Below the pieces are notes generated by a model, which ran no database searches, was not told where the DNA came from, and saw only the letters and a program-made list of their open reading frames with translations. Made by a program: the position numbers and the translations under genes. 64,000 bases of DNA from Asticcacaulis sp. AND118 (GTDB taxonomy: Bacteria; Pseudomonadota; Alphaproteobacteria; Caulobacterales; Caulobacteraceae), in the NCBI RefSeq assembly GCF_020535245.1, contig NZ_CP084910.1, positions 2,704,501 through 2,768,500 of the forward strand. Direction: 5' to 3'. Shown in pieces: positions 15,836 to 61,125 of this stretch; positions within the stretch are counted from its first letter, which is position 1; every line of letters begins with the position of its first letter.

Positions 15836-17032
15836 ATGGGTTACCCCAAGATCAAGCACGTGCGCGCTTACGTCATCAAAGGTGGCGAGGGCGGCGGCGG
15901 CGCCGATTATCACGATCAGGGCGAAGGTCACTGGATCGACAATCACATCGCCACCTCCATGGGGCGCTATCCGGAATACCGCCAGAGCCGCAAGAGCTTC
16001 GGCATCAACGTGCTGGGCACGCTGGTGGTCGAGATCGAGGCCGATGACGGCACGGTTGGCTTTGCCGTAACCACCGGCGGCGAGCCCGCCTGCTACATGG
16101 TCGAAAAGCACTTCGCCCGCTTCCTCGAAGGCCGCAACCCGTTCGAGTACGAGCGCATCTGGGATCAGATGTATTTCGGCTCGCAATATTACGGCCGCAA
16201 GGGCCTGGTCGTGAACGCCATTTCGGGCGTCGACCTGGCGCTGTGGGACCTGATGGGCAAGCTGCGTCAGGAGCCGGTCTATCACATGCTGGGCGGCGCG
16301 GTGCGCGACGAACTGCAATTCTACGCCACCGGCGCGCGTCCGGACCTCGCCAAGGACATGGGCTTTATCGGCGGCAAGATGCCGCTGTATCACGGCCCGA
16401 TCGAAGGCGACGAAGGCCTCAAGAAGAATGTCGAGCTGGTCGCCGACATGCGCTCGAAGGTCGGCGAAGACTTCTGGCTGATGTACGACTGCTGGATGGC
16501 GCTCGACGTCAACTACGCCACCCGTCTGGCGCACAAGTGCCACGAGTACGGTCTGAAGTGGATCGAAGAAGCCATCAATCCGGACGACTACTGGGGCTAT
16601 CAGCAGCTCAAGAAGAACGTTCCCGCCGGTATGCTGGTCACCACGGGCGAGCACGAATCGACGCGCTGGGGCTTCAAGATGCTGCTCGAAATGGGTTGCT
16701 GCGACATCATCCAGCCGGATGTGGGCTGGTGCGGCGGCGTGACCGAGCTTCTGAAGATCTCGGCTCTGGCTGATGCGCACGGCGCGCTGGTCGTGCCGCA
16801 CGGTTCGTCGGTCTATAGCTATCACTTCGTCATTACGCGTCACAACTCGCCGTTCGCCGAGTTCCTGATGATGGCGCCGAAGGCCGACCACGTCGCGCCG
16901 ATGTTCCATCCGCAGTTGCTGGGCGAGCCGGTGCCGGAAAACGGTCGCCTGAAGGTGACCGCGCTCGACAAGCCGGGCTTCGGTGTGGAACTGAACCCGG
17001 AAGTAAAGCTCTTCCGTCCGTACGAACACTAA
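15836..17032 (+). CDS. rhmD: L-rhamnonate dehydratase
   Basis: 398 aa enolase-superfamily enzyme. The N-terminal signature [20 protein letters not shown] and [17 protein letters not shown] match E. coli RhmD (YfaW). Metal and catalytic sites are visible as [47 protein letters not shown] and [11 protein letters not shown] (catalytic His). It dehydrates L-rhamnonate to 2-keto-3-deoxy-L-rhamnonate. The start at 15836 follows AAAAAGG with 7-nt spacing. It heads a plus-strand run with the next three genes, which supply the following and preceding steps of the pathway. Confidence 0.95.
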
Positions 17033-17040
17033 GAGACAGG

Positions 17041-17142
17041 CCCCCTCACCCCAACCCTCTCCCTCAAGGGAGAGGGGGCTTTTTTATCTACCCTTCTCCC
17101 TTGAGGGAGAAGGTGGCCCGAAAGGGCCGGATGAGGGGGAAT
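17041..17142. repeat. Palindromic intergenic repeat (type B)
   Basis: Two hairpins, CCCTCTCCCTC / GAGGGAGAGGG-like and TTCTCCCTTGAGGGAGAA, are bounded by CCCCTCACCCC and GGATGAGGGG. The first hairpin is followed by TTTTTT and may also end transcription. A related copy lies at 56588-56703. Confidence 0.8.
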
Positions 17143-17162
17143 TTCGCAAAGGAATACTTTAA

Positions 17163-18035
17163 ATGAAACTCGTCCGTTTTGGCCCGAAGGGTCAGGAAAA
17201 ACCCGGCGTGATCGACGCCGAAGGCAAGCTGCGCGACCTGTCCTCGGTCGTTGCCGACATCACCCCCGAAGAAGTCCGCCTGTCGAAGCTGGCCGGCCTG
17301 AAGGCCACCGACGTCGCCGCCCTGCCGGTCGTCGAAGGCGAGCAACGCTTCGGCGTGCCGGTCAACAAGATCGGCAAGATCATCGCCGTCGGCCTCAACT
17401 ATGCCGACCACGCCGCCGAGTCGAACCTGCCGGTGCCGCCTGAGCCCATCTTCTTCACCAAGGCCGTCACCTCGCTGACCGGCCCGAATGACGACGTGAT
17501 GAAGCCGCGCGATGCGACCAAGATGGACTGGGAAGTCGAGTTGGGCCTGATCATCGGTAAGACCTGCCGTTACGTCGAAGAATCCGACGCGCTGAACCAC
17601 GTCGCCGGCTACGTGCTGGTCAACGACGTGTCCGAGCGCGCCTTCCAGAAAGAACGCGGCACGCAGTGGGTCAAGGGTAAGGGCTGCGACACCTTCTGCC
17701 CGACCGGCCCGTGGCTGGTCACGCCGGAAGAGATCGGTGACGTGCATAACCTCGACATGTTCCTCAACGTCAACGGCCAGCGCATGCAGACCGGCAACAC
17801 GAAGACCCTGATTTTCAACGTCGCCCACTGCATCAGCTACATCTCGCGCTTCATCACCCTGCAACCGGGCGATCTGGTCATCACCGGCACGCCTCCGGGC
17901 GTCGGCGAAGGCAAGAAGCCGAACGCCATCTATCTGAATGCCGGTGACACCATGCACCTCGGCATCTCCGGCCTCGGCGAGCAGCGCCAGACCGTCGTGC
18001 CGTTCTCGCTCGAAAATCAGGAGATCATCGACTAA
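17163..18035 (+). CDS. 2,4-diketo-3-deoxy-L-rhamnonate hydrolase, FAH family
   Basis: 290 aa fumarylacetoacetate-hydrolase protein. The N-terminal lid is MKLVRFGPKGQEKPGVIDAE. The catalytic core has VGLNYADHAAESNLPVPPEP, DWEVELGLIIGKTCRYV (metal-binding Glu), VLVNDVSERAFQKERG and LVITGTPPGVGEGKKP. In the LRA pathway the LRA6-type hydrolase splits 2,4-diketo-3-deoxy-L-rhamnonate to pyruvate and L-lactate. Position between rhamnonate dehydratase and the SDR, with a one-base stop/start overlap to the latter, supports that role over the other FAH activities. Confidence 0.88.
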   Translation: MKLVRFGPKGQEKPGVIDAEGKLRDLSSVVADITPEEVRLSKLAGLKATDVAALPVVEGEQRFGVPVNKIGKIIAVGLNYADHAAESNLPVPPEPIFFTKAVTSLTGPNDDVMKPRDATKMDWEVELGLIIGKTCRYVEESDALNHVAGYVLVNDVSERAFQKERGTQWVKGKGCDTFCPTGPWLVTPEEIGDVHNLDMFLNVNGQRMQTGNTKTLIFNVAHCISYISRFITLQPGDLVITGTPPGVGEGKKPNAIYLNAGDTMHLGISGLGEQRQTVVPFSLENQEIID

Positions 18036-18781
18036 TGGCATACGCTGGACGTTTTAACGATCGCTGCGCCGTCATCACCGGCGCCGCCGGTGGCCTCGGT
18101 AAGGCTGCCGCCGCTCGCATCATCGCCGAAGGCGGCAAGGTCGTCCTGTGGGACCTGAACGCCGAAATGCTCGAAGCCACGGCCAAGGAAATCGGCGCCG
18201 CCGGTTTTGTGGCTCTGGACGTGTCGAAGCTGGAAGAGGTTTCGGCCGCGGCTAAGAAGTCGGCTGAAATCCTCGGCAAGATCGACATTCTGGTCGCTTC
18301 GGCGGGCATCACCGGCGCAACCGTGCCGGTGTGGGAATTCCCGGTCGATTCGTGGCTTAAGGTCATGGATATCAATCTCAACGGCCTGTTCTACTGCAAC
18401 CGTGAGATCATCCCCTTCATGCTCGAAAACGGCTATGGCCGCATCGTCAACGTCGCTTCGGTGGCGGGCAAGGAAGGCAATCCCAACGCCTCGGCCTACT
18501 CGGCGTCCAAGGCGGGCGTGATCGGCTTCACCAAGAGCCTCGGCAAGGAACTGGCCACCAAGGGCATCATCGTCAACGCCCTGACCCCGGCTACGTTCGA
18601 GTCGCCGATCCTGGCGCAACTGCCGCAGAGCCAGGTCGACTACATGCGCTCGAAAATCCCGATGGGACGTCTGGGCATTGTCGATGAATCGGCAGCGATG
18701 GTCTGCTTCATGGCGTCGGAAGAGTGCTCGTTCACAACGGCTTCGGTGTTCGATACGTCGGGCGGTCGCACGACCTACTAA
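18035..18781 (+). CDS. 2-keto-3-deoxy-L-rhamnonate 4-dehydrogenase, SDR family
   Basis: 248 aa short-chain dehydrogenase with TGAAGGLGKAAAARI (cofactor loop, about residues 14-28), LVASAGITGATVPVW, NVASVAGKEGNPNAS and the YSASKAG active site at about residues 152-158. NAG of the common motif is changed to SAG. It likely oxidises 2-keto-3-deoxy-L-rhamnonate at C4, feeding the diketo-hydrolase encoded just upstream. The ATG overlaps the previous stop (TAATG). A related SDR acts on L-fucose-derived acid, so fuconate is the main alternative substrate. The rhamnonate dehydratase and rhamnose dehydrogenase nearby favour rhamnose. Confidence 0.87.
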   Translation: MAYAGRFNDRCAVITGAAGGLGKAAAARIIAEGGKVVLWDLNAEMLEATAKEIGAAGFVALDVSKLEEVSAAAKKSAEILGKIDILVASAGITGATVPVWEFPVDSWLKVMDINLNGLFYCNREIIPFMLENGYGRIVNVASVAGKEGNPNASAYSASKAGVIGFTKSLGKELATKGIIVNALTPATFESPILAQLPQSQVDYMRSKIPMGRLGIVDESAAMVCFMASEECSFTTASVFDTSGGRTTY

Positions 18782-18790
18782 ACTAAAAAT

Positions 18791-18947
18791 CCTCCTCCCC
18801 TGCGCAAGCGGGGGAGGTGGCATCGCAAGCCCTTCTTGAGGGCGCGTCGATGACGGAGGGGGCCAACCCTCCAGCCATGCCCCCTCCGTCGCGGACTTCG
18901 CCTTTCGGCGAACGCCGCGCCACCTCCCCCGCTTCGCAAGGGAGGAT
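18791..18947. repeat. Palindromic intergenic repeat (type A)
   Basis: CCTCCTCCCCTGCGCAAGCG at the left and CCCCCGCTTCGCAAGGGAGG at the right form the outer inverted arms, with CGACGGAGGGGG-type inner arms. Copies or relatives lie at 29311-29400, 36088-36233 and 54756-54936. It ends 6 bp before the GGAGGA ribosome site of the lactonase gene. Confidence 0.85.
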
Positions 18948-18965
18948 AAATACGGAGGAATGCTC

Positions 18966-19874
18966 ATGACCAAACTCCCCTTTATCGACGCCCATATCCA
19001 CCTGTGGGATCTCGATCATCTGCGTTACGGCTGGCTCTCGGCTCCGTTCGACGATTCCGGCGTTAACGGCTCGACCGAAGCCATCGCCCAGACCTACCTC
19101 CCCTCGCATTACCAGACCGACGCCACCGGCTTTGACGTGCGCGGCACGGTGCATATCGACGCCGGTGCGCACGCCGATGATGCCCTGGCCGAAACCGAGT
19201 GGCTGCAGAAGCTGCATGAACAGACCGGTCTGCCTACTGCCATCGTCGCCTTTGCCGGCCTGAACGATCCGAAGGTTGAAGCCCTGCTGGAAGCCCACAC
19301 GCGCTACTCCGCCGTGCGCGGCATCCGCCACATTCTCAACTGGCACCCCAACCGCTATTTCAGCTACACGCCCGCCAATCTGCTCGACGACCCGCAGTGG
19401 CAAGCAGGCTATGCGCTGCTGGCCAAGTACGGCCTGTCCTTCGACCTGCAAATCTACGAAAACCAGATGGCGGCCTCGGCGGCGCTGGCGGCAAAGCATC
19501 CGGATATTCCGATAATGCTCAACCACGCGGGTATGCCGGTCGATGACGGTGACGGCCACCTGAGCCGCTGGGAAGCCGGGTTGAGGGCACTCGCGGCTCA
19601 GCCCAATGTCTCGGTCAAGATTTCCGGCATGGGCTTCGCCGATCGCCAATGGACGACGGACTCGATCCGTCCGCTGGTGCTGACTGTCATCGACATCTTC
19701 GGCACCGACCGCGTGATGTTCGCTTCCGACGTGCCGACCGACAAGCTGTTCTCGGACTACAAGACCATCATGGAGTCGTTCGACGCGGTGACGAAGGACT
19801 TTTCCGACGACGAACGCCGGGCCATGTTCGCCGGCAATGCCAACCGCCTCTACCGTCTGGGCCTGACGCTGTAA
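18966..19874 (+). CDS. L-rhamnono-1,4-lactonase, amidohydrolase family
   Basis: 302 aa TIM-barrel amidohydrolase. DAHIHLWDLDHLRYGWL at residues 8-24 is the metal-binding HxH motif of the L-fuconolactonase / rhamnonolactonase group. MLNHAGMPVDDGDG and FASDVPTDKLF carry the later His and Asp. It hydrolyses the lactone made by rhamnose dehydrogenase to L-rhamnonate. Two in-frame ATGs exist (18960 and 18966), and the second is chosen because GGAGGA at 18954 is then at normal spacing. It is the last gene of the plus-strand rhamnose run, separated from the SDR by a type A repeat. Confidence 0.88.
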   Translation: MTKLPFIDAHIHLWDLDHLRYGWLSAPFDDSGVNGSTEAIAQTYLPSHYQTDATGFDVRGTVHIDAGAHADDALAETEWLQKLHEQTGLPTAIVAFAGLNDPKVEALLEAHTRYSAVRGIRHILNWHPNRYFSYTPANLLDDPQWQAGYALLAKYGLSFDLQIYENQMAASAALAAKHPDIPIMLNHAGMPVDDGDGHLSRWEAGLRALAAQPNVSVKISGMGFADRQWTTDSIRPLVLTVIDIFGTDRVMFASDVPTDKLFSDYKTIMESFDAVTKDFSDDERRAMFAGNANRLYRLGLTL

Positions 19875-19903
19875 TGGCCAATGGATATGGTTAATGATTC
19901 CTT

Positions 19904-19945
19904 CACCGGCGCGGCCTAACGTCTGCAAAGACGTCCCCGCCGGTG
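19904..19945 (+). promoter_or_regulatory. Nested hairpin overlapping the ribosome site of the GT41-like gene
   Basis: CACCGGCG (19904-19911) pairs with CGCCGGTG (19938-19945), enclosing a second stem ACGTCT/AGACGT with a GCAA loop. The right arm overlaps the GGTGGAG ribosome site of the following gene (ATG 19955). It could limit translation or mark the end of the rhamnose transcript. Confidence 0.5.
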
Positions 19946-19954
19946 GAGTAAATC

Positions 19955-21688
19955 ATGAGCGCCGTAGATCCCGCCGTTCTGGAACGCGTGACGCACCTGT
20001 TCAATCAGGGCAAGGACGCCTTGCAGGACGGCATCGGCGCCACGGCGCTGAGAGCCTTTCGGACGCTGGCCGACGAAAACCCGCATTCCTTCGAAGTCTG
20101 GTACTGGGTCTACAGCGCCGCACTGTGCGCCGGTGACGACGAAATGGCGCGCAAGGCCATAGACACTGCCGTCCTGCTGCACGGCATCGAACTGATGCCC
20201 GGCATCGAGGTGGATGTCGCCCGCTTCGACCGCGATGCCGCTTACGATCAGCAACTGTTCGAGACCTGCTACGCCAGCCACTATGTGGGTCTGGCCTCGG
20301 TCTTCGGAAAGCGCGCGCGCGACCTCGGTATCCGCACGCCCGACATGCTGGTGCGCTACGCCCTCTCGCTGCAACATCAGGGCCGCGCCGTCGAAGCCAA
20401 CGAAGCCTTCGCCGCCGCCTACAATGCCCACCCCGCCGCCAACGTGGCGCAGTTTTATCTCTATTCGCTGTTCCATGTGCCCAACGGCGTGCAGCGCTAC
20501 GCCTCCGAAGCGCGCGCCTGGGCTAGGAATTTTGCAGATTTCGAAGCGGCTGAGCGCATAGCGCCCCGGTCGCTGGACGGCCGACGCCTGAAGGTTGCAT
20601 ATGTCGCGCCTAACTTCTCGAAAACCCAGCTTTACCAGTTCATCCTGCCGATTTTGAAAAATCACGATCCGGATTTTATCGAAATTACTCTGTACACGGC
20701 AGATACTAATACAGAGACGCCATTGCCGTGTAACCGCATGGTCTCCATCGGGCATCTCAACGACACCGACGCCGCTGAACTGATCCGCAAAGACGCTCAG
20801 GACATATTGATCGACACCTGGGGGCATACGGCCGGCAGCCGTCTCGGTATTTTCGCGCGCCGCGCCGCGCCGGTGCAGGTGGCATGGATAAACTTCGTTC
20901 AGACCACCGGTCTGTCGCAAATGGATTATGTTCTGCACTCGGACTCGATGGACGCGCCCGGCACGGCAGAACTGTTTACCGAAACCGTCTGGTCGATGGG
21001 TGACATCACCATCCCTTATCGTCCGACCATGCAGCGCCTGCCCGATGTGCCGCCCCCCGCTCTTACCAATGGTTTCGTTACCTTCGGATGCTTCAATCAC
21101 CCCGCCAAAATCAGCAACGAAAGCGTCGCCGCCTGGGCGCGCATCCTGATCAGTAAGCCAGACGCGGTGCTGCTCATGAAGTACAACTACTTCCTGGACC
21201 CCATCGTACAACGCACGTTCCGCGCCCGCTTCGCGGCCTATGGCGTGGACGACGGGCGGATCCTTTTCGAAGGTCATTCAAAGGGTATAGAATACGCCGA
21301 GTCGTACCAGCGTATCGACCTGATGCTCGACCCGTCGCCCTGCCCCGGAGGCACGACCAGTTGCGACGCTGTGGCCAATGGCGTGCCGGTCCTCACTCTG
21401 GCGGGCGACGACTTCTATTCGCGCGTCGGTATTCAGGTCGTGGCCGTTTCGGGCCTGCCTGAACTGGTGGCCAGAAGCTGGGACGACTATGTGGCGCGTG
21501 CCGTGGCGCTGGCGCATAATATCGAGGCGTTGACGGAAATCCGGGCGCGCACCCGGCCGGGCTTCGAAGCCTCGGCGCTTCGCGACGAAGCGGGCTTTAC
21601 CCGCAGGCTGGAAGAGGTCTTCCGCAAAATGCACGAACGCGCGCAGTGGGCGTTCGCAGACAGAGCGCTGGGCAGCCTGGCGTCATGA
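19955..21688 (+). CDS. TPR-containing GT41-like (OGT/SPINDLY-type) glycosyltransferase
   Basis: 577 aa, no signal peptide. Residues 1 to about 190 are helical TPR-like repeats (LFNQGKDALQDGIGATALRA, LVRYALSLQHQGRAVEANEA). From about residue 205 the C-terminal part matches the GT-B catalytic region of OGT-like proteins: LKVAYVAPNFSKTQLYQF, DILIDTWGHTAGSRLGIFAR, VQVAWINFVQTTGL, FVTFGCFNHPAKISNE and LMLDPSPCPGGTTSCDAVAN. Relatives include Caulobacter FlmG, which sugars flagellin, and HMW1C-type N-glycosyltransferases. It overlaps the GNAT gene and leads a four-gene run. The acceptor protein and donor sugar are unknown. Confidence 0.85.
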   Translation: MSAVDPAVLERVTHLFNQGKDALQDGIGATALRAFRTLADENPHSFEVWYWVYSAALCAGDDEMARKAIDTAVLLHGIELMPGIEVDVARFDRDAAYDQQLFETCYASHYVGLASVFGKRARDLGIRTPDMLVRYALSLQHQGRAVEANEAFAAAYNAHPAANVAQFYLYSLFHVPNGVQRYASEARAWARNFADFEAAERIAPRSLDGRRLKVAYVAPNFSKTQLYQFILPILKNHDPDFIEITLYTADTNTETPLPCNRMVSIGHLNDTDAAELIRKDAQDILIDTWGHTAGSRLGIFARRAAPVQVAWINFVQTTGLSQMDYVLHSDSMDAPGTAELFTETVWSMGDITIPYRPTMQRLPDVPPPALTNGFVTFGCFNHPAKISNESVAAWARILISKPDAVLLMKYNYFLDPIVQRTFRARFAAYGVDDGRILFEGHSKGIEYAESYQRIDLMLDPSPCPGGTTSCDAVANGVPVLTLAGDDFYSRVGIQVVAVSGLPELVARSWDDYVARAVALAHNIEALTEIRARTRPGFEASALRDEAGFTRRLEEVFRKMHERAQWAFADRALGSLAS

Positions 21689-22245
21689 ACGGGATCGGAC
21701 CAGTTCTGGAAAGCCCGCGCCTGATCCTGCGCCCGCCTGCAGCCGAAGATTTCGAGGGATTCAAAACCTTCCATGCGGATGCGCGCGTTATGACCTATCT
21801 CGGTGGGCCTTCCGGGCCGGCCATAGCCTGGCGCTCGATGCGCTACATGGCCGGGTTGTGGCAGATGGACGGCTTCGCCATGTTCAGCATCATCGAGAAG
21901 GCTTCCGGACAATGGATCGGCCGTGGCGGCCCTATTCGGCCTTATGACTGGCCCGGCGTCGAGGTCGGCTGGGGCCTGTTGCCGGACTGGTGGGGCAAGG
22001 GGCTGGCGTTGGAAGCCACGGCAATGGCCACAGAGTTTGCGTTCACCCAACTGGGGCTGGACGCAGTGGTGCACACTATCGATCCGCGTAACGACGAATC
22101 GGCGCGTCTGGCGACGCGGCTGGGCTCGCGCCGCGAAGGCCCCGTCAAGCTACCGGAACCCTATGTCGATACGACGGTCGATCTGTGGAGACAGACGGCT
22201 GAGGAATGGCGCGTAAACCGCACGCGCTTCGATTTTATACTGTAA
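21685..22245 (+). CDS. GNAT acetyltransferase, RimJ/RimL type
   Basis: 186 aa from ATG 21685, overlapping the glycosyltransferase stop by 4 bp (ATGA). Family text: ESPRLILRPPAAEDFEGFKT at the start, VEVGWGLLPDWWGKGLALEA as the acetyl-CoA loop, and HTIDPRNDESARLATRLGS at the end. These enzymes acetylate N-termini of proteins or amino groups of sugars. Being translationally coupled to the GT41-like gene, it may acetylate the same glycan or target, comparable with FlmH in Caulobacter flagellin modification. That link is inference. Confidence 0.85.
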   Translation: MNGIGPVLESPRLILRPPAAEDFEGFKTFHADARVMTYLGGPSGPAIAWRSMRYMAGLWQMDGFAMFSIIEKASGQWIGRGGPIRPYDWPGVEVGWGLLPDWWGKGLALEATAMATEFAFTQLGLDAVVHTIDPRNDESARLATRLGSRREGPVKLPEPYVDTTVDLWRQTAEEWRVNRTRFDFIL

Positions 22246-22275
22246 TGTCAACCCTGTGATTCGCCGAAACCCCGT

Positions 22276-23067
22276 ATGACTGGTCTCAAACCCGCAGACA
22301 TTTTCGCTACCGAACTGGACGAACAGGGGTGGTCGCTATTTCCGGATCTGCTGCCGGTCGAGACGGTGCAGGCCCTGCGCGAAGACTGCCTGAAATGGGT
22401 CGATATCTGCCGTGGTTATCAGATGCGCAACGGCATAAATGCCGATGGCGACGGCACGGCCCACCACTCGATCGGCGCGGGCGATTCCATCGACGCCTTC
22501 ATCGACAGCCACCTATTCGATGCCCATTTCCAACAGTTCTTCTCAGGTGCGCCCTATATTCTCCACGCCTGCAATCCGGTCGGCGGTTTCCCGGCGCGAC
22601 GCAACTATGTGCACAATATTCACCGCGACGTGCGCACTTTCATTCCCGCCTACAATATGCGCATGAACGTACTGGTCATGCTGGATGACTTCACCGAAGA
22701 GAACGGTGCGACACACGTGCTGTCGGGTTCGCACCGCCGGGCGGAAATGCCATCCGAGGCTGAATTCGACGCCGGTTTCGAGCGCCTGACGGGCAAGGCC
22801 GGCAGCGTGGTCCTATTCAACTCCTACCTCTGGCATCGCGGCGGGCTGAACCGCACAGAGAGCCCGCGCGTGGCCTTGACACTCAGCTATGGCCCCGCCT
22901 TCATCAAGCCGCAGATGGACTATGCCCGTCTGCTTGGCGAAGACCACGGCCGGACCTTGAGCGAACAGACAAGGCAGGTCCTGGGTTATAATTCACGGGT
23001 GCCGACGACGCTGGACGAATGGTACAGACCGGCGCCGGACCGCCTCTATCACGGAAATCAGGGATAA
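22276..23067 (+). CDS. PhyH-family Fe(II)/2-oxoglutarate dioxygenase
   Basis: 263 aa double-stranded beta-helix protein. The iron triad is visible: His116-x-Asp118 in NIHRDVRTF and His187 in SYLWHRGGLN, with the 2-oxoglutarate Arg198 in TESPRVAL. NVLVMLDDFTEENGATHVLS is typical of phytanoyl-CoA dioxygenase relatives that hydroxylate small molecules or glycans. It lies 30 bp after the GNAT gene and 5 bp before the methyltransferase. It probably hydroxylates a sugar or lipid made or transferred by the same cluster. The substrate cannot be read from sequence. Confidence 0.88.
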   Translation: MTGLKPADIFATELDEQGWSLFPDLLPVETVQALREDCLKWVDICRGYQMRNGINADGDGTAHHSIGAGDSIDAFIDSHLFDAHFQQFFSGAPYILHACNPVGGFPARRNYVHNIHRDVRTFIPAYNMRMNVLVMLDDFTEENGATHVLSGSHRRAEMPSEAEFDAGFERLTGKAGSVVLFNSYLWHRGGLNRTESPRVALTLSYGPAFIKPQMDYARLLGEDHGRTLSEQTRQVLGYNSRVPTTLDEWYRPAPDRLYHGNQG

Positions 23068-23072
23068 CCGAC

Positions 23073-23801
23073 ATGCCGACACGCGACTTCAATCAGGAAG
23101 CCCGATCTCTGACCGATAAGAAGTACAATTATGATTTCGACGGCATCGTGCGCCAGTACATGATGCGCGCATTCGAGCCGTTTTTCGGGCCCGGGCCGGC
23201 ACTGGAGCTGGGGTGTTATGAAGGCGATTCGACGCTGGAACTGGTGCGTTATTTCGATGATCTGACGGTCGTCGAGGCCTCTTCCGAAGCGCTGGATGTC
23301 GCGCGGTCACGCGTACAGGGCAATGTGCGTTTCATTCAGTCGGTATTCGAAGACCTGGAACCCGGACAGCTTTACGACACCATCTTCCTGATCAATACGC
23401 TGGAGCATATCGACAATTCGGTCGAGGTGCTGGCGCGTATTCGCGAATGGCTGACCGCCGAGGGGCGGCTATTTGTCCTTGTGCCCAATGCCGACGCCCC
23501 GTCGCGTCAGATTGCCGTCTATATGGGGCTGATCACGCACAACAATGCCGTCACGCCGGGCGAATGGACCCACGGCCATCGTCGCACCTATTCGTTTGAC
23601 ACGCTGAACCGCGACCTGCGCGATGCCGGCCTGAGCGTGCTGCACGCCGGCGGCATCCTGTTCAAGGGCCTGGCCAACTTCCAGATGGATAAGGCTCTGG
23701 AAGCCGGGATCATCGACATGAACTATATCGAGGGCTGCTACAAGCTGGGGCAGATTCAACCGACCCTGTGTTCCAGTATCTTCGCGGTCTGCACCCGATA
23801 G
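23073..23801 (+). CDS. SAM-dependent methyltransferase, class I
   Basis: 242 aa from ATG 23073. The frame continues upstream to 23019, but that would overlap the dioxygenase. SAM-binding motif I is ALELGCYEGDSTLELV, acidic motif II is LTVVEASSEAL, and motif post-I is LYDTIFLINTLEHIDNSVEV. The C-terminal part (THGHRRTYSFDTLNRDLRDA) resembles methyltransferases found in polysaccharide or sugar-modification clusters. It ends the plus-strand run of the putative glycan module and is convergent with the FemAB-like gene, whose stop lies 1 bp away. Confidence 0.87.
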   Translation: MPTRDFNQEARSLTDKKYNYDFDGIVRQYMMRAFEPFFGPGPALELGCYEGDSTLELVRYFDDLTVVEASSEALDVARSRVQGNVRFIQSVFEDLEPGQLYDTIFLINTLEHIDNSVEVLARIREWLTAEGRLFVLVPNADAPSRQIAVYMGLITHNNAVTPGEWTHGHRRTYSFDTLNRDLRDAGLSVLHAGGILFKGLANFQMDKALEAGIIDMNYIEGCYKLGQIQPTLCSSIFAVCTR

Positions 23802-23802
23802 C

Positions 23803-24690
23803 CTAACCGCGATAAGCGGGGAAAAAACCCGGCGGTTTGCCGGCGCTAAGGCGGGCATAGGCTTCGGCATCGAGGATTTGGCCGCAAATATGCGCCGTGA
23901 TCTCGGCATTGGCAAAGCCCTGCTTGAAGGCAAACAGCCCGCCGCCGTCCGCCCCGGAAGCGCCTGAGCCTCCGCCCAGATTTATCACGCCCTGCCCGGC
24001 AAAGGCCGTGATGGCGGCGTCGTAAAGCGCGAAGGCGGCACTGTTGGCGTAGCCCGTTTCATCGCAGGCCGTCAGGTGGTTATAGACCACGCCGTCCTGC
24101 GCAAACCACAGTGTCATGCCGACGATTTGTCCGTCCACGGAAGCGGTAAAAGCCGACAGGCCCGGTATGGCCGCCAGTCGGTCGAAGTAGGGTGCGCGAA
24201 AATCGGCCATACCCGTAATGCCGCGGTGCGCGACCAACCTCGCATAGAGACGTTTCCAATCGTCGAGCCAGGGCGACAGCCGGCCCTGCATTATCTGGCA
24301 ACGACGATAACCCCGGCGAATGCGCTCGCGATGGTGACGGCTGGGGGCATAGGGCCCGTCAATCAGCAGATGCGTTTTGAATTCGGTCCAATGCGAAAAA
24401 TGCCGCGACAGGACCTGCAGTGGCAGCCGATGCAAAGGATCGGGCACCATAACGACACTGATCAGGCCCTCTGCCTGCAATTGCGTCAGACCGGCTGCCA
24501 GATCGGCTGAGACGCTCAAAGGGGTGAGAGGATAGCTGCCGACCGCATCATATCCACCGCCCGCTATCGGACGTTTCAGGCACGCCGAGCCCCAGTCCGG
24601 CACCCATAGCGCCTGTCCCTCCGTCGGGCCTAGCGCTTCGACGTAGAAGGGATCGGCATAAGGATGTACTCCGGGCAAAAACCCGCTCAT
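23803..24690 (-). CDS. FemAB/GNAT-like (BioF2-type) acyltransferase
   Basis: 295 aa from ATG 24690 (MSGFLPGVHPYADPFYVEAL). The ATG overlaps the DegT stop (ATGA), while the longer frame to 24942 lies within that gene. LIDGPYAPSRHHRERIRRGY and FTASVDGQIVGMTLWFAQDG are typical of the double-GNAT fold of FemAB or CelD-like transferases. GVINLGGGSGASGADGGGLF followed by FKQGFAN is the usual end motif. Such proteins transfer amino-acyl or acyl groups to envelope glycans. It is translationally coupled to the DegT aminotransferase, suggesting acylation of the amino sugar that enzyme makes. Confidence 0.75.
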   Translation of the reverse strand: MSGFLPGVHPYADPFYVEALGPTEGQALWVPDWGSACLKRPIAGGGYDAVGSYPLTPLSVSADLAAGLTQLQAEGLISVVMVPDPLHRLPLQVLSRHFSHWTEFKTHLLIDGPYAPSRHHRERIRRGYRRCQIMQGRLSPWLDDWKRLYARLVAHRGITGMADFRAPYFDRLAAIPGLSAFTASVDGQIVGMTLWFAQDGVVYNHLTACDETGYANSAAFALYDAAITAFAGQGVINLGGGSGASGADGGGLFAFKQGFANAEITAHICGQILDAEAYARLSAGKPPGFFPAYRG

Positions 24691-25853
24691 GCGTCTTGGA
24701 AAAACGACTGCAGCAGGCCGGTCAGGCGCGCCACCTGAGCGTCGTCCATGGTCGCGCAATAGGGCAAACCAAGAGTGGTGGCCGCCAGATGCTCCGTGTT
24801 CGGAAGGGTGTCGCGTAGAATATCCGTAAACGCTCGCGAAGTGTGACAACCATCGCCCCACCATTGGCGGCTGTCGATATGATGGCTTTTCAGGAAAGCA
24901 ATCAGCGGCATCAGGGCCTCTTGAGGCACCCGCACCACGCAAACGCTCGACACCCAGCGCAGGCCCCAGCCCTCCTGGAACTGAACCTGCGGCACATCCT
25001 TCAGCGCGATGCGCAGCTTGAACGCCGTCTGCTGATACAGAAGCCGCGTCGAAGCCCAGTTGTCCATAGCCGACAGGGCCACAGCCGCCGCGTATTCGCT
25101 CATCTTGGCGTTCAGCGCGACCATCTGCGATTCGCGCGTGCCGTTAAAACCGAAGCTCGACAACATGCGCACCCTCAGCGCGAAATCCGCATTCGGGCAG
25201 ACGATATAACCGCCCTCGCCCACCCCCAGCGACTTGGTGGCGTGCACACTGACGGCCATGGGAAACGGCGCTTCGGTCAGGCTGTCATGCGCGGCGGCGG
25301 CATCGACGACGACCCTGACGCCGGTCCGGGCCTGAAACTGAGCCCATCCCTCGACATCCAGCGGCGCGCCGTGCGCGCAGACCGGGATAAGGGCGCGTAC
25401 CTCGCCGGGGGCACGAGACAGAACGGTCTGACACATCTGCGGATCGAGCATGGCCGTTTCCGCATCGACATCGATAAACCACGGCGTCAGACCCGCCGCC
25501 AGCACCGCATGAGCCGTGGCCACGAAGGTCCAGGACGGTAGGGCGCAGACCGAGCCCTTGGGCAGGTTCAGCGCCATCAAAGCCAGCAGCAGCGCCGACG
25601 TGCCGCTCGACGCGGTCACCGCATGGGCGTCAGGACCGAGACGCTCGGCCAGCCGCTTTTCCAGTTCGCACACCAGCGGGCCGAAATTGGAATAGTGCCG
25701 CGAGGCATCGATGTGATCGAGATAGGGGGCGATGGCCGAAGCCGGCGGCATATGCGGCCGCGCGACGGGGAGCCAGTCGTGCGCAGGCGCGGGCGGGGTG
25801 AACTGAACTCTGGCGGTGCTGCGCATGGACGTGTCCTCGGCGAAGGCCTTCAC
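24687..25853 (-). CDS. DegT/DnrJ/EryC1-type PLP-dependent sugar aminotransferase
   Basis: 388 aa, normal length for the family. PLP-site residues are visible: ASSGTSALLLALMAL (about 81-95), Asp184 in VVVDAAAAHD and Lys207 in SVHATKSLGVGEGG. SSFGFNGTRESQMVALNAKM matches the NGK segment of NDP-sugar aminotransferases. It would install an amino group on a keto-sugar nucleotide. A second start at 25826 is possible. With the coupled FemAB-like gene it faces the GT41-like run, so the two mini-operons may build and attach one modified amino sugar. That is inference. Confidence 0.85.
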   Translation of the reverse strand: MKAFAEDTSMRSTARVQFTPPAPAHDWLPVARPHMPPASAIAPYLDHIDASRHYSNFGPLVCELEKRLAERLGPDAHAVTASSGTSALLLALMALNLPKGSVCALPSWTFVATAHAVLAAGLTPWFIDVDAETAMLDPQMCQTVLSRAPGEVRALIPVCAHGAPLDVEGWAQFQARTGVRVVVDAAAAHDSLTEAPFPMAVSVHATKSLGVGEGGYIVCPNADFALRVRMLSSFGFNGTRESQMVALNAKMSEYAAAVALSAMDNWASTRLLYQQTAFKLRIALKDVPQVQFQEGWGLRWVSSVCVVRVPQEALMPLIAFLKSHHIDSRQWWGDGCHTSRAFTDILRDTLPNTEHLAATTLGLPYCATMDDAQVARLTGLLQSFFQDA

Positions 25854-26018
25854 TGTGTCTAAACATGGTTAACAAACCGTATTAGGCGCTCCCTCGTCGG
25901 GGCCGCGCATTTGGTTTGGATCGCAACGAAATGTGTCTTTTCAGGTATTTAGAGCTATGCCCATCATCGGTATACGGGAATTTTATTGACGCCGCCGGGG
26001 GCAGGCTATAGCTGAGCC

Positions 26019-42550: not shown

Positions 42551-43300
42551 ATGATCTTGACCCGCCGTCAGTGGCTGGCCTCCGGGCTTGCTGCCTCCGC
42601 CTCTTCCTCGCTCATGGCCCCCTCGCTGTTCGCCGCGGAAACCGGCGATCTGGTCTACGCCAATCCGCTGAAATCGCAGGCGGACGTGGCGAAGTTCAAA
42701 ATGGAAGGCGACGCGAAGGTCGATTTCCCCAATGGCCGCATGCAACTCAGCGCCCTGCGCGACGCCGCCGAAGGGCAGGCGTCGAACTTCGTCTACTGGT
42801 GCCCGGAGGTCTTTCCGGACCACGTCGAAATCAGTTGGAACTTCTGGCCGCTGAAGGAACCGGGCCTGTGCATCCTGTTCTTCGCCGCGGGCGGAGTGAA
42901 CGGCGAGCACATCCTGTCGCCCAAGCTCAAACCGCGCGCCGGCATCTACGATCAGTACACCAAGAGCGACGTCAAGGCGCTGCAGATCTCCTATTACCGC
43001 CGCCGCTGGGAGGAGGAACGCGCCTTCCATCTGGCCAATCTGCGCTATGCGCCGGGTTTCGAGATGCTGGCGCAGGGCGCCGACCCCCTTCCCGACGTCG
43101 AGGACGCCAAACCGCCCTACCGCATCAAGATCCGCAAGGCCGGCGCGACGGTGGCCTTCACCATCAACGACCTCCCTGTGGTCAACTGGACCGGCGCCAC
43201 CGAGCGCCAATGGCCCACCACCGGCAGCATCGGCTTTCGTCAGATGGCCCCGCTGGTCGCCGAATATGCCGACCTCGAAGTGCGACGGATCAAGGTTTAA
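42551..43300 (+). CDS. Tat-exported DUF1961 (YesU-like) protein
   Basis: 249 aa. The N-terminus TRRQWLASGLAASASSSLMA with AA-rich end is a twin-arginine signal. The mature part is a beta-jelly-roll of the DUF1961 family: VYWCPEVFPDHVEISWNFWP, KEPGLCILFFAAGGVNGEHI and SYYRRRWEEERAFHLANLRY. Bacillus subtilis YesU, of the same family, is encoded in the rhamnogalacturonan cluster yes/rhg, so this match supports an RG-I role for the locus. No enzyme activity is established in my knowledge. It may bind or cleave a sugar in the periplasm. It follows rhaI by 41 bp and overlaps cutA tail to tail by 11 bp. Confidence 0.85.
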   Translation: MILTRRQWLASGLAASASSSLMAPSLFAAETGDLVYANPLKSQADVAKFKMEGDAKVDFPNGRMQLSALRDAAEGQASNFVYWCPEVFPDHVEISWNFWPLKEPGLCILFFAAGGVNGEHILSPKLKPRAGIYDQYTKSDVKALQISYYRRRWEEERAFHLANLRYAPGFEMLAQGADPLPDVEDAKPPYRIKIRKAGATVAFTINDLPVVNWTGATERQWPTTGSIGFRQMAPLVAEYADLEVRRIKV

Positions 43301-43607: not shown

Positions 43608-43720
43608 GATTGCTGATTTCAGCCTCCGGGCGTTTGCTGTGCTATTCCGTAGTTGACAATTGAAAGCTTGTGATATCTGCTGTTTTCAGCAGTTCATAAA
43701 AAATTTATACTAAACACACC

Positions 43721-44340: not shown

Positions 44341-44358
44341 CACCCGCACATAACAAGT

Positions 44359-44388: not shown

Positions 44389-44411
44389 GATATTGAGCTG
44401 AGACTGCTGCT

Positions 44412-44725: not shown

Positions 44726-44726
44726 A

Positions 44727-47492: not shown

Positions 47493-48431
47493 CTAACGAT
47501 CAACCTTTTCCAGAAACCACTTATAGGTTTCTTCGATACCTTTATGCAACTCGATCCTGGGGCTCCACCCCATGCCCCTGAGCTTATCTGCGCTCATGAG
47601 TTTTCGAGGGGTGCCATCGGGCTTTGAAAGGTCGTGAACGATCTCACCTTTGAAGCCAACCACATCGCACACGATCTGTGTCAGTTCGAGGATGGTCACG
47701 TCCTCGCCCGAGCCCACATTGACATGCTCGAAACCCGAATAGCCCTTCAGTAAAAAAACCAAAGCGTCCGCACAGTCGTCACAGTGCAGGAACTCCCGAC
47801 GCGGGGTGCCGGTGCCCCAGACGACGATCTGCGGATCGCCCCTCAACCTGGCCTCATGCGCCTTGCGAATAATAGCCGGCATGACATGGCTGGAGTTCAA
47901 ATCGAAGTTATCACCCGGTCCATACAGATTTGTAGGCATGGCTGAGATAAAATCACGTCCATACTGCTTGCGGTAAGCCTGCCCCAACTTGATACCGGCG
48001 ATCTTTGCAATGGCATACCACTCATTGGTGGGCTCAAGAGGGCCGGTCAGCAGGGAGGCTTCCTGGATCGGCTGATCGGCAAACTTCGGATAAATGCACG
48101 ACGAGCCTAAAAACAAGAACTTCTGAACATCGGTCTCGAATGCCGCGTGCGTGATATTGGCCTCGATCATGAGGTTGTCGTAAAGGAAGTCCGCCGGCAG
48201 GGTATCGTTGGCCAGAATGCCCCCGACCTTGGCCGCCGCCATCACGACCGCATCAGGTCTGGCATCACGAAAGAAGGCTTCAACCTCAGCCTGACGCTTC
48301 AGGTTAACCGCTTTGCGGTCCGCTGTAATCACCTCGCAACCTTCACCGGCCAAACGACGTACCACGGCGGACCCCACCATCCCGCGATGCCCGGCTACGT
48401 ATACGCGCTTTCCGTTCAGCTCAAAGGTCAT
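47493..48431 (-). CDS. fcl: GDP-L-fucose synthase
   Basis: 312 aa SDR-type epimerase/reductase. NADP loop VYVAGHRGMVGSAVVRRL, active-site LFLGSSCIYPKFADQP with the catalytic Cys/Ser, NEWYAIAKIAGIKLGQAYRK (Tyr-Lys) and AMPTNLYGPGDNFDLNSSHV. It makes GDP-L-fucose from GDP-4-keto-6-deoxymannose, the product of gmd, whose stop lies 2 bp upstream of this start. The two genes plainly form one transcript. GDP-L-fucose would feed the polysaccharide begun by the sugar transferase at 44778. Confidence 0.95.
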   Translation of the reverse strand: MTFELNGKRVYVAGHRGMVGSAVVRRLAGEGCEVITADRKAVNLKRQAEVEAFFRDARPDAVVMAAAKVGGILANDTLPADFLYDNLMIEANITHAAFETDVQKFLFLGSSCIYPKFADQPIQEASLLTGPLEPTNEWYAIAKIAGIKLGQAYRKQYGRDFISAMPTNLYGPGDNFDLNSSHVMPAIIRKAHEARLRGDPQIVVWGTGTPRREFLHCDDCADALVFLLKGYSGFEHVNVGSGEDVTILELTQIVCDVVGFKGEIVHDLSKPDGTPRKLMSADKLRGMGWSPRIELHKGIEETYKWFLEKVDR

Positions 48432-48433
48432 GA

Positions 48434-49573
48434 TCAGCCCTCGACGCTTACGGGCAACTCAAGCCCGTGCGCTTTGAGGATAGCGAAGCGACGCGCCGCC
48501 TTATAATCCTCAGCCACCATTTCAGCGCACATTTCCTGAACCGTGATTTCCGGCGTCCAGCCAAGCTTTTCCTTGGCCTTTGTGGGATCGCCCAACAGCG
48601 TATCCACCTCGGCAGGGCGGAAATAACGCGGATCGATACGGACGACCACGTCACCGACCTTCAGGGCCGGGGCCTTATCCCCCGCTACGGCAACGACCGT
48701 TCCGACTTCATCGACCCCCTGACCGCTAAATTCGACGGTGACGCCCAGTTCCTTCGCCGACCATTTGATGAATTCACGAACCGAATATTGAACACCGGTT
48801 GCGATAACAAAATCCTCAGCTTGCTCCTGTTGCAGCATCATCCACTGCATGCGCACATAGTCCTTGGCATGGCCCCAGTCTCGCAAAGAATCGATATTGC
48901 CCATATAGAGGCACTTCTCGAGACCCAATGAAATATTGGCCAAACCGCGCGTAATTTTGCGCGTGACAAAGGTTTCGCCGCGACGAGGAGACTCGTGGTT
49001 GAACAGTATGCCGTTACAGGCATACATACCGTAGGCTTCGCGGTAGTTGACCGTTATCCAATAGGCATAGAGCTTGGCGACCGCGTAGGGCGAGCGGGGA
49101 TAAAATGGCGTGGTTTCCCGCTGTGGAGTCTCCTGGACCAGGCCGTACAGCTCCGAAGTAGACGCCTGATAAAAGCGCGTCTTCTTGTCCAAACCCAGAA
49201 AACGTATGGCTTCCAAAAGGCGAAGAGTGCCGGTGCCGTCGACATCGGCGGTATATTCAGGGGCTTCGAAACTTACAGCGACGTGCGACTGCGCACCCAG
49301 ATTATAGATTTCATCCGGTTCGATATCCCGAACGAGACGGGTCAAATTGGATGTGTCTGTCAGATCCCCGTAATGCAGCTTGAACTGCGTATTACCGACA
49401 TGCTGGTCTTCGTAAATGTGATCGACACGCGCCGTATTGAACAAAGAGGCCCTGCGCTTTATGCCATGAACCTCGTAACCCTTCTCAAGCAAAAACTCGG
49501 CCAGATAAGAACCATCCTGGCCGGTGACCCCCGTTATCAATGCGACTTTTTTTTCAGAGTTACGTTCGGTCAT
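48434..49573 (-). CDS. gmd: GDP-mannose 4,6-dehydratase
   Basis: 379 aa. [20 protein letters not shown] holds the Rossmann loop, [20 protein letters not shown] the catalytic Thr and Glu, [20 protein letters not shown] the Tyr-Lys pair, and [18 protein letters not shown] the GDP-binding part. It converts GDP-D-mannose to GDP-4-keto-6-deoxy-D-mannose for Fcl. GDP-mannose would come from the ManC encoded 195 bp upstream. No GDP-perosamine synthase follows, so fucose or rhamnose-type deoxysugars are the expected end products. Confidence 0.96.
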
Positions 49574-58287: not shown

Positions 58288-59160
58288 TTAGCTACCTTGG
58301 GCAAGAACGCGGAAGAGGTATTTGCCGTATTCACTCTTACCGAGGTTCCGGGCGCTGGTTTCAAGCTGCGCCGCGTCTATAAAGCCCTGCCGCCAGGCAA
58401 CCTCTTCGGGGCAGCAGATCTTCATACCCTGCCGCTTTTCCAGCACGCGTACGAATTCAGCGGCGTCGAGCAGGCTGTCGGGCGTGCCGGTATCAAGCCA
58501 GGCATAGCCGCGCCCAATCGGCAGGACGCTCAGTTGTCCCCGCTCCAGATAGACGCGGTTGACGTCGGTGATCTCGAACTCGCCGCGCGCCGAAGGCTTG
58601 AGATTGGCGGCGATATCGACCACCTGATGATCGTAGAAATAAAGCCCGGTAATCGCCCAGTTCGACTTGGGCCGGATGGGCTTTTCCTCAACGGACAGGG
58701 CCTTGAAATTATTGTCGAATTCCACAACGCCATAGCGTTCCGGATCGGAAACCTGATAGGCGAAAACCGACGCACCGGCCGTGATCTGCGAAGCCTGCGC
58801 GAGGGTTTCCGTCAGATTGGACCCATAATAGATATTGTCACCAAGGATCAGGCACGAGGGCTGCGAGCCGACGAAGTCCGCCCCGATCATATAGGCCTGC
58901 GCCAGACCGTCCGGGCTTGGTTGCTCAGCGTAAGAGAGCGAGATGCCCCACTTCTGACCATCTCCCAGCAACTTCTGGAACAGCGGCAGATCGTGCGGCG
59001 TGGAAATGATCAATATCTCGCGAATGCCCGCCATCATCAGGGTCGATAGCGGATAATAAATCATCGGCTTATCGTAGACCGGCATCATCTGCTTGGAGAT
59101 GCCTATGGTCATAGGGTTCAGTCGCGTGCCGCTGCCGCCCGCCAGAATAATACCCTTCAT
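58288..59160 (-). CDS. rfbA: Glucose-1-phosphate thymidylyltransferase
   Basis: 290 aa from ATG 59160, with AAGGAG upstream. [57 protein letters not shown] and [20 protein letters not shown] are diagnostic. It makes dTDP-glucose, the first step to dTDP-L-rhamnose. It is the last gene of the leftward operon rfbC-rfbB-rfbD-rfbA, starting 4 bp after rfbD. An open extension to 59268 lies inside rfbD. Confidence 0.96.
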
Positions 59161-59164
59161 TCTT

Positions 59165-60061
59165 TTACTCCTTGCCCACCGGGGCGCCCAGCAGGCGCGC
59201 CAGGCAGTCCTCCAGAGACACATGCCACGGATCGAGACGCAGGTCATAGATTTTCGCCAGTTTCTCACCGCTCAGACGCGAATTGGCCGGACGTTTGGCC
59301 GGCGTCGGATAGGCCTCGGTCGGGATCGGATTGACCTTCACCGCCTTGCCGCCGCGCCGCACGCTACCGTCAAAAACCGCTTCGGCAAAGCCGGCCCAGG
59401 TGGTTTCCCCCTGACCCGTCAGGTGGAAGACACCGCGCAGGGCCGGGTCGGCATCGGTGACAACGCGCTGCGCGACGATCAGCAGAGCGCGAGCGATTTC
59501 CGGCGCATAGGTCGGACAGCCGCGCTGATCGGCAACGACATTGATCTCGTCCCGAGACTCACCCAAGCGCAGCATGGTCTTCACGAAATTATTACCATAG
59601 GGCGAATAGACCCAAGCCGTGCGCACTATGACGTGGTTCGGCGTCGCCGTCGCAATCTGAAGCTCACCCGACAGCTTGGTCCGACCATAGACGCTCACCG
59701 GCGCCGGCACGTCAGACTCTTCATAGACCCCCTCCTTGCCACCGGCGAAGACATAGTCGGTCGACAGGTGGAGGATGGGAATATTCAGATCGGCGGCGAT
59801 GCGCGCCAGTTCTCCCGGTGCGTCGCCATTGATAGCCTGAGCCAGACTGGCCTCGCTCTCCGCCTTGTCGACCGCCGTATAGGCCGCTGAGGAGATGATC
59901 ACATCGGGCTTCGCGGCCCTGATCGGCCCGGCCAGAGTTTCGGGAGCCGACAGATCGACTTCGGGCAGGCCTACACGAATGACCTCAATGCCCATCGCTT
60001 CACCCAACACCTGAAGCGAGGTATCGACCTGCCCCTCCCTACCCGTCACCACAATGCGCAT
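59165..60061 (-). CDS. rfbD: dTDP-4-dehydrorhamnose reductase
   Basis: 298 aa from ATG 60061, 2 bp after the rfbB stop. [20 protein letters not shown] (cofactor loop, with GREGQ in place of GxxGQLG), [40 protein letters not shown], and [11 protein letters not shown] with the catalytic Tyr and Lys. It reduces dTDP-4-keto-L-rhamnose to dTDP-L-rhamnose, the last step of the pathway. Confidence 0.95.
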
Positions 60062-60063
60062 GA

Positions 60064-61125
60064 TCAGGCCTTCGCTTCGCTGAGCACGCCCAGACGCTCG
60101 CCGGTGTAGACGCCGCCGCGCAATGGTCGCCACCAGTGCGCATTGTCGAGATACCAGCGCACGGTCTTTTCGATGCCGGTGTCGAAGGTCTCGTGTGCCT
60201 TCCAGCCGAGCTCGGTTTCGAGCTTGGTGGCGTCGATGGCGTAGCGATGATCGTGCCCCGGGCGGTCGGTAACGAAGCTGATAAAGCGATCATGCGGCGC
60301 GCCTTGCGGACGAAGTTCGTCCATCAAGGCGCAGATGCGGCGCACCACATCGATATTCTTGCGCTCGTTACGACCGCCGACATTGTAGGTTTCACCCAGA
60401 CGCCCCTTCGAAGCGATCAGGTGCAGAGCGCGGGCGTGATCGTCGACATAGAGCCAGTCGCGGATGTTCGAGCCATCGCCATAGACCGGCAGCGGCTTGC
60501 CTTCCAATGCGTTGAGGATGTTGAGCGGGATCAGCTTTTCCGGGAAATGGAAGGGACCATAATTGTTCGAGCAGTTCGACACCACGACCGGCAGGCCATA
60601 GGTGCGATGCCACGCCTTGGCCAGATGGTCCGACGCCGCCTTCGAGGCCGAATAGGGCGAAGACGGGTCATAGGGGGTGACTTCTTCGAAAAGGCCGGTT
60701 TCCCCAAGACTGCCGTACACTTCGTCGGTCGACACATGCAGGAAGCGGAAGTTCGTCTTGTCCTCGCCGGACAGACCGTTCCAATAGTGGCGCGCAGCTT
60801 CGAGCAGGGTGAAGGTGCCCATGACATTGGTCTGGACGAACTCACCCGCGCCAGTGATCGAGCGATCAACATGGCTTTCGGCGGCAAGGTGCATGATGTG
60901 ATCCGGCTTAAAGCCATTGATCGCCGTGACAACAGCCTCACGATCGCAAATATCCGCCTGCACGAAACTGTAATTGTTAGCGCCTGCGATCGGCTCCAGC
61001 GAGGCCAGATTGCCGGCATAGGTCAGCTTGTCCAGATTGAGCACTTCCGCGCCCACTTCCGACACCAGATAGCGCACCAGAGCCGAGCCGATAAAACCGG
61101 CGCCGCCGGTAACCAGAATACGCAT
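60064..61125 (-). CDS. rfbB: dTDP-glucose 4,6-dehydratase
   Basis: 353 aa. [60 protein letters not shown] (catalytic Thr-Asp-Glu), [20 protein letters not shown] and [18 protein letters not shown] are standard RmlB text. It converts dTDP-glucose to dTDP-4-keto-6-deoxyglucose using bound NAD. It follows rfbC by 31 bp on the same strand. Confidence 0.97.

What the first reader, a model, noticed from the sequence alone, without database searches (positions are those of the whole stretch)
19904..25853. Possible new protein- or glycan-modification module built around a GT41-like transferase
Two coupled mini-operons meet tail to tail (1-bp gap). One is a GT41-like TPR glycosyltransferase + GNAT + PhyH dioxygenase + methyltransferase, the other a FemAB-like transferase + DegT aminotransferase. 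Together they could make, hydroxylate, acylate, methylate and attach an amino sugar. The group lacks obvious flagellin or dehydratase genes and splits a catabolic region, suggesting a self-contained accessory module. I know of no described system with this exact set.
Basis: inference. Interest (0 to 1): 0.72.

Follow-up and report, generated by a model that had tools for sequence, protein, structure and literature searches.

The report
Swappable protein-glycosylation module in Asticcacaulis
Six neighbouring bacterial genes form a real, recurring kit that probably builds a decorated amino sugar and attaches it to a protein, most likely the flagellum protein; it resembles known flagellin-glycosylation islands but adds an enzyme shaped like those that add amino acids to cell-wall precursors.

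The parts
19955..21688 (+). TPR-GT41 (SPINDLY/OGT-type) glycosyltransferase, 577 aa
   Evidence: PF13844 127.7 bits; family profile closest to SPINDLY 305 bits, 5djs (T. terrenum OGT, named from memory) 285, human OGT 190; N381, K385, T467 invariant in 17 of 17 aligned relatives
21685..22245 (+). GNAT acetyltransferase (Acetyltransf_3), start overlaps GT41 stop (ATGA)
   Evidence: PF13302 109 bits; junction read
22276..23067 (+). PhyH-type Fe(II)/2OG dioxygenase, 263 aa
   Evidence: PF05721 67 bits; HRD 116-118, WHRGG 186-190, R198; 66% identical to the PhyH of the fliC-linked cassette L096
23073..23801 (+). class I SAM-dependent methyltransferase, 242 aa
   Evidence: PF13489; PDB 2p7h 255 bits; relatives at E<=1e-20 in 13 of 398 genomes sampled across the phylum, own genome included
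23802..23802 (.). 1-bp gap between the two convergent mini-operons
   Evidence: sequence
23803..24690 (-). FemX-fold transferase (Fem), 295 aa
24687..25826 (-). DegT/DnrJ/EryC1/StrS sugar aminotransferase, 379 aa (GTG start at 25853 also possible), stop overlaps Fem start (ATGA)
   Evidence: PF01041 188 bits; best NCBIfam DesI 158 bits, below its cut-off of 650; PLP-lysine motif ATKSLG
58288..61125 (-). rmlA, rmlD, rmlB (dTDP-4-keto-6-deoxyglucose/rhamnose); possible precursor supply, not part of the module
   Evidence: TIGR01207, TIGR01214 and TIGR01181 over their cut-offs
47493..49573 (-). fcl and gmd (GDP-4-keto-6-deoxymannose/fucose); alternative precursor supply
   Evidence: NF047922 and TIGR01472 over their cut-offs
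18960..19874 (+). left border of the swap slot: lactonase-like amidohydrolase at the end of the L-rhamnose catabolic operon
   Evidence: PF04909; NF052480 120 bits, below its cut-off of 400; same border in L034, L124, L125, L126
26019..27611 (+). right border of the swap slot: citramalate synthase cimA
   Evidence: TIGR00977 657 bits, over its cut-off; E<=1e-150 in 16 of 25 genus genomes

Best explanation
The six genes are an accessory protein-glycosylation cassette of the flagellin-glycosylation-island kind. Inferred steps: (1) an NDP-4-keto-6-deoxyhexose from RmlA/RmlB (or GMD) is the substrate; (2) DegT puts an amino group on C4; (3) Fem and GNAT acylate that nitrogen (with an acyl or an aminoacyl group); (4) PhyH hydroxylates and the methyltransferase methylates the sugar or its acyl group; (5) GT41, whose TPR domain would pick the acceptor, attaches the sugar to a cytoplasmic protein, most likely flagellin before export, beside the FlmG-type/pseudaminic-acid route the genome already seems to have. 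The site is a swap slot for such genes in this clade. Shown by sequence: gene content, intact motifs, clustering, flagellar linkage of related cassettes in other genomes, different slot contents in relatives. Not shown: substrates, order of steps, acceptor.
For: GT41 and Fem relatives share 17 contig lengths of 90 and 79 (null mean 0.32, max 3 in 2000 draws). Of 25 named GT41 loci: a DegT-family gene in 20 (one a broken remnant), a PhyH-type gene in 18, a methyltransferase in 13, a Fem-type gene in 8, NeuB or PseG in 10. Among 16 loci read outside the family: G306 has TPR-GT41, DegT, GNAT, PhyH, MT, WbqC, then fliC and fliD; G417 has fliC and fliD 5-15 kb from a cassette with TPR-GT41; G282 has DegT and MT beside two flagellins; in C. 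metallidurans CH34 fliC lies about 13 kb from the cassette's MT. In G032, same family, another TPR-GT41 protein lies about 1.3 kb from two flagellins. The slot holds PseF, PseG, a PseH-like GNAT and a PhyH in G006. Precedents: PMC4875605, PMC3927599 (passages).
Against: The genome has a FlmG-like TPR protein (two fused halves, 45% identical) beside three flagellins and pseudaminic-acid genes. No flagellin lies in the DNA held for any of the 25 named GT41 loci. 13 of the 16 outside loci show no flagellin in the stretch first fetched; Rhizobium and Tateyamaria plasmids carry the MT cassette with GT2 or GT61, so the sugar is not flagellin-specific. A. currens keeps an intact GT41 without the other genes. 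The window GT41 core is only 30% identical to the fliC-linked one. The Fem query was found in only 4 of 61 relatives' genomes, GT41 in 20 of 61.
Confidence: 0.55

Rival explanations
1. Same chemistry, but the acceptor is a protein other than flagellin (surface, adhesin or cytoplasmic protein); the FlmG-type enzyme alone serves flagellin.
For: FlmG-like gene in 23 of 23 same-genus genomes of the sample; no flagellin in the DNA held for 25 of 25 named GT41 loci; a protein with RTX-like repeats (my reading of the sequence) is encoded in 7 of the loci; GT41 stands without the kit in A. currens.
Against: fliC-linked copies of related kits in other genomes; slot shared with pseudaminic-acid genes; I found no acceptor candidate common to the loci.
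Confidence: 0.25
2. The sugar enters an envelope polysaccharide or tailors pseudaminic acid, and GT41 acts on a glycan rather than a protein.
For: Rhizobium plasmids carry the cassette with GT2, Tateyamaria with GT61; 10 of 25 GT41 loci hold NeuB or PseG.
Against: The GT41 relatives with solved structures (SPINDLY, OGT, HMW1C-like NGT) are protein transferases (for the matches, function from established knowledge); none of the six genes is a flippase, polymerase or priming transferase.
Confidence: 0.14
3. Small-molecule (natural product) tailoring cluster.
For: DesI is the best NCBIfam model for DegT; the Fem fold matches streptothricin-type enzymes.
Against: No scaffold-forming enzyme among the six genes; TPR-GT41; flagellar linkage in other genomes.
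Confidence: 0.04
4. Chance neighbours of unrelated function.
For: Genes on two strands; most lost in A. currens while GT41 stays.
Against: Co-occurrence far above the null, ATGA overlaps, recurrence in other genera.
Confidence: 0.02

Closest known systems
Enterobacterial flagellin glycosylation islands (PMC4875605, passages read)
   Same: GT41 (SPINDLY-type), DegT aminotransferases, SAM methyltransferases, acetyltransferases; variable islands
   Different: Those lie at fliDC/AZ; the window copy is far from the flagellin genes; the terms dioxygenase, phytanoyl and acyltransferase have 0 occurrences in that paper's main text; no FemX-type gene in the passages read
Viosamine island of Pseudomonas syringae (PMC3927599, passages read)
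   Same: DegT aminotransferase VioA, methyltransferase VioM (241 aa), acyltransferase VioB; lies between conserved gs and hk genes, variable among strains; acts on flagellin
   Different: VioT is a 1173-aa transferase that caps a rhamnosyl glycan; acyl made with VioS/VioR/ACP; no GT41, PhyH or FemX-type gene in its Table 1. VioA and VioM themselves were not aligned here
FlmG / pseudaminic acid flagellin glycosylation of Caulobacter crescentus (PMC7591256, passages read)
   Same: TPR domain plus GT-B transferase acting on flagellins
   Different: The window genome has a separate FlmG-like gene at its flagellins; window GT41 is another protein with its own sugar kit. C. crescentus FlmG itself was not aligned here
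SPINDLY and OGT (GT41)
   Same: Catalytic core, essential Lys (SPY K665 = K385), T748 = T467
   Different: SPY H495 position is Thr/Ser/Leu/Ala in the clade (0 of 17 His); SPY Y744 position is Cys (16 of 17)
FemX and Sbb17/Sba18 aminoacyl-tRNA-dependent transferases
   Different: Only 14-16% identity; aminoacyl-tRNA use untested

Membership tests
GT41 glycosyltransferases | Glyco_transf_41 domain over cut-off | tested here: met
   PF13844 127.7 bits, cut-off 25
GT41 glycosyltransferases | Essential phosphate-binding Lys (SPY K665) | tested here: met
   K385, 17 of 17 (K665 role from passages of PMC9715652)
GT41 glycosyltransferases | His at the SPY H495 position | tested here: not met
   T224; 0 of 17 His. 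PMC9715652 (passages) gives this His a probably structural role, so I do not treat it as defining
Flagellin glycosylation island | Glycosyltransferase plus sugar synthesis and modification genes | tested here: met
Flagellin glycosylation island | Located at the flagellin/fliD genes | tested here: not met
   Flagellins lie at C1:1.303-1.306 Mb and on C2; module at C1:2.724 Mb. Related cassettes in L096, L100 and L105 do meet it. So the window module is called island-type, not filed as a member
Flagellin glycosylation island | Flagellin carries the sugar | not testable with these tools
   needs mass spectrometry
Viosamine island | Aminotransferase of dTDP-4-keto-6-deoxyglucose type | tested here: inconclusive
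   DesI is the best NCBIfam model at 158 bits, below its cut-off of 650
FlmG orthologue | Gene beside the flagellins | tested here: not met
   A different gene (C1:1298409-1301930) has this position and TPR layout
FemABX transferases | Tandem-GNAT FemX fold | tested here: met
FemABX transferases | FemAB Pfam family (PF02388) | tested here: not met
   Not matched by the window protein; matched by 3 of 54 relatives, PF13480 by 52 of 54. So filed as FemX-fold, not as a FemAB member
FemABX transferases | Aminoacyl-tRNA donor | not testable with these tools
   biochemistry needed
PhyH 2OG dioxygenases | HxD...H iron ligands | tested here: met
   HRD 116-118, H187 in WHRGG

The most novel reading that the evidence does not exclude
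Fem is an aminoacyl-tRNA-dependent enzyme that puts an amino acid on the C4 amine of a deoxysugar; GNAT, PhyH and the methyltransferase then acetylate, hydroxylate and methylate that aminoacyl group, and GT41 attaches the aminoacyl-sugar to protein. This would be a protein glycan built partly from the translation machinery's charged tRNA.
Probability: 0.17. Interest if true: 0.78.

Novelty: new variant of a known kind. Interest (0 to 1): 0.5.

Why it matters
It offers a compact, tractable case of how bacteria exchange whole sugar-modification kits at one chromosomal slot and couple them to an OGT/SPINDLY-type transferase. If Fem uses aminoacyl-tRNA, protein glycosylation and translation would share a substrate in a way that did not turn up in the paper searches made (open-licence PMC only). 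It also gives a testable second flagellin, or non-flagellin, glycosylation route in Caulobacteraceae beside FlmG.

Tried and rejected
Rejected: chance adjacency; 'no dehydratase available'; clearly foreign recent DNA (GC like the flanks; GC3 0.68-0.78 in the module against 0.77-0.87 in six neighbours; no end repeats of note). Promoter- and terminator-like sites were no more than in shuffles. No Rfam hit in the window. PHROGs gave only general acetyltransferase, methyltransferase and aminotransferase matches and one weak odd one for PhyH. Considered and dropped: GT41 replacing FlmG, because a FlmG-like gene is present; the module replacing the pseudaminic-acid genes, because PseF, PseG and NeuB are elsewhere in the genome. 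A search with a TPR-GT41 protein from G032 as a stand-in for FlmG hit TPR proteins in 60 of 61 genomes and did not discriminate. Recalled, from no call: that PDB 2p7h is Pectobacterium ECA1738 of a flagellar island (the output says 'Hypothetical protein'; no paper held ECA1738); the role of human OGT C917; the role of FemX K305; that 5djs is the T. terrenum OGT. PseB, PseC, fliS, fliE, fliF and RTX labels without a domain call are my reading of sequences.
Full report
What is there. The six genes exist at the stated place and are intact. Plus strand: TPR-GT41 19955-21688, GNAT 21685-22245, PhyH 22276-23067, methyltransferase (MT) 23073-23801. Minus strand: DegT 25826 (or 25853) to 24687, then Fem 24690 to 23803. 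GT41/GNAT and DegT/Fem overlap by ATGA, and MT and Fem end 1 bp apart. Motifs are intact: GT41 N381, K385 and T467 align with SPINDLY N661, K665 and T748 (SPINDLY residues from passages of PMC9715652), PhyH has HRD and WHRGG, DegT has ATKSLG.

Surroundings. Upstream is an L-rhamnose catabolic operon (L-rhamnonate dehydratase and 2,4-didehydro-3-deoxy-L-rhamnonate hydrolase over their cut-offs, an SDR and a lactonase-like gene); downstream are cimA and a GPH-type transporter. The module has no sugar dehydratase, but rmlA, rmlB, rmlD, gmd and fcl are in the same window. So it is not self-contained, and a 4-keto-6-deoxy precursor is available.

More than chance. I compared longest-contig lengths of at least 4 kb among the 120 listed best relatives of each protein. 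GT41 and Fem share 17 (of 90 and 79), GT41 and MT 5 (of 90 and 59), Fem and MT 7 (of 79 and 59); jittered lengths gave means of 0.32, 0.16 and 0.14. The window's own contig is one of the 17. In the 25 named loci that encode a GT41 relative, tblastn found a DegT-family gene in 20, a PhyH-type gene in 18, an MT-type gene in 13, a Fem-type gene in 8, and NeuB or PseG in 10; GT41, DegT, PhyH, MT and Fem occur together in 3 (L035, L037, L038); L040 has GT41 only. Several loci end at contig ends, and the A. currens DegT counted there is a broken remnant. The kit is rare among near relatives: GT41 in 20 of 61 genomes and Fem in 4 of 61 at E<=0.001.

What kind of thing it is. MT relatives at E<=1e-20 occur in 13 of 398 genomes sampled across the phylum, own genome included, and in 20 plasmid records. 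I fetched surroundings for the 11 of these 13 genomes that lie outside the family and for 5 of the 20 plasmid records, 16 loci in all. Most show a portable cassette: DegT, WbqC, PhyH or two glycosylase-like genes, GNAT and MT, with different transferases (GT41, GT2, GT61). In G306 (L096) the order is TPR-GT41, DegT, GNAT, PhyH (66% identical to the window's), MT (59%), WbqC, then fliC and fliD, confirmed by Pfam. In G417 (L100) fliC and fliD lie on the same 20-kb stretch as a cassette with a 930-aa TPR-GT41 frame; by my reading fliS-like genes on one side and fliE/fliF-like genes on the other frame the cassette. In G282 (L105) DegT and MT follow two flagellins, without GT41 or PhyH found. In C. 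metallidurans CH34 fliC lies about 13 kb from the cassette's MT, seen only after extending that locus. So 3 of 16 loci hold flagellin in the stretch first fetched and 13 do not; of the 5 with GT41 (L091, L094, L096, L100, L101) 2 do, 3 with the CH34 extension. At an assumed 1% chance per locus, 3 of 16 has probability 5e-4; the loci are not fully independent. Within the family, G032 has another TPR-GT41 protein (24% identical to the window's) about 1.3 kb from two flagellins.

The swap slot. In G006 (cimA 95% identical) the space between the lactonase-like gene and cimA holds PseF (319 bits, over cut-off), a PhyH, KAS III, a Rieske oxygenase, an SDR, PseG (182 bits, over cut-off) and a PseH-like GNAT (below cut-off). 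G001 (95%) and G011 (90%) have PseF and PseG at the same site, G011 with extra genes; G023 (96%) shows part of it at a contig end. A. currens has GT41 and a broken DegT there. Six more distant Asticcacaulis loci show cimA without the lactonase in the stretch read. The own genome keeps PseG, a PhyH, a PseH-like gene and PseF 37-41 kb upstream of GT41, and NeuB with PseB- and PseC-like genes at C1:350-354 kb. Thus the slot holds different glycan-modification genes in close relatives, one set belonging to the pseudaminic-acid pathway that feeds flagellin in Caulobacter (PMC7591256, passages).

Against flagellin as acceptor. A 1174-aa TPR protein beside three flagellins has two halves 45% identical. 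Relatives of it occur in all 23 same-genus genomes of the sample and in 26 of 37 overall. It fits the position and TPR layout published for FlmG (passages of PMC7591256), though no GT domain was named by Pfam and C. crescentus FlmG was not aligned. None of the 25 named GT41 loci shows a flagellin in the DNA held. GT41 of A. currens looks constrained without the kit (omega 0.06, but dS is saturated at 2.6). Flagellin is therefore the likeliest acceptor, not a shown one.

Literature. Enterobacterial flagellin glycosylation islands contain GT41, DegT, methyltransferases and acetyltransferases (PMC4875605, passages). The P. syringae viosamine island (DegT, methyltransferase, acyltransferase; between the gs and hk genes) decorates flagellin (PMC3927599, passages). 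PMC12310338 (passages) mentions a seven-gene island in Pectobacterium. No paper in the library held flagellin, phytanoyl-CoA dioxygenase and glycosylation together. The kind is known; this gene set, with a FemX-fold enzyme, in an exchange slot of Caulobacteraceae, is a new variant.

Noticed in passing
window 19875-26018; L124, L125, L126: The site between the lactonase-like gene and cimA holds pseudaminic-acid genes (PseF, PseG, PseH-like) in close relatives: an exchange slot.
   Followed up: yes
L064:4407-7931 (own genome C1:1298409-1301930): FlmG-like TPR protein beside the flagellins is a fused tandem (about 1170-1190 aa) in seven of 23 Asticcacaulis genomes sampled; in most others the main frame is about 616-709 aa, often with a second matching frame nearby.
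   Followed up: partly
L092, L093, L095, L097-L103: A DegT-WbqC-glycosylase-like-GNAT-MT cassette recurs, also on Rhizobium and roseobacter plasmids, with varying glycosyltransferases; function unknown to me.
   Followed up: partly
L034:11723-12459: A. currens keeps an intact GT41 but only a broken DegT remnant.
   Followed up: partly
L073:12010-14289 (G032): A different TPR-GT41 protein lies about 1.3 kb from two flagellin genes in a genome of the same family.
   Followed up: partly
window 43000-51000: Region of lower GC (0.53-0.56 against about 0.60 around it) holding gmd, fcl and a mannose-1-phosphate guanylyltransferase, probably a polysaccharide locus.
   Followed up: no
L038:8312-11650: One frame of 1112 aa holds two GT41 copies in tandem in a Phenylobacterium MAG.
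   Followed up: no
window 15836-19874: Complete-looking L-rhamnose catabolic operon.
   Followed up: no
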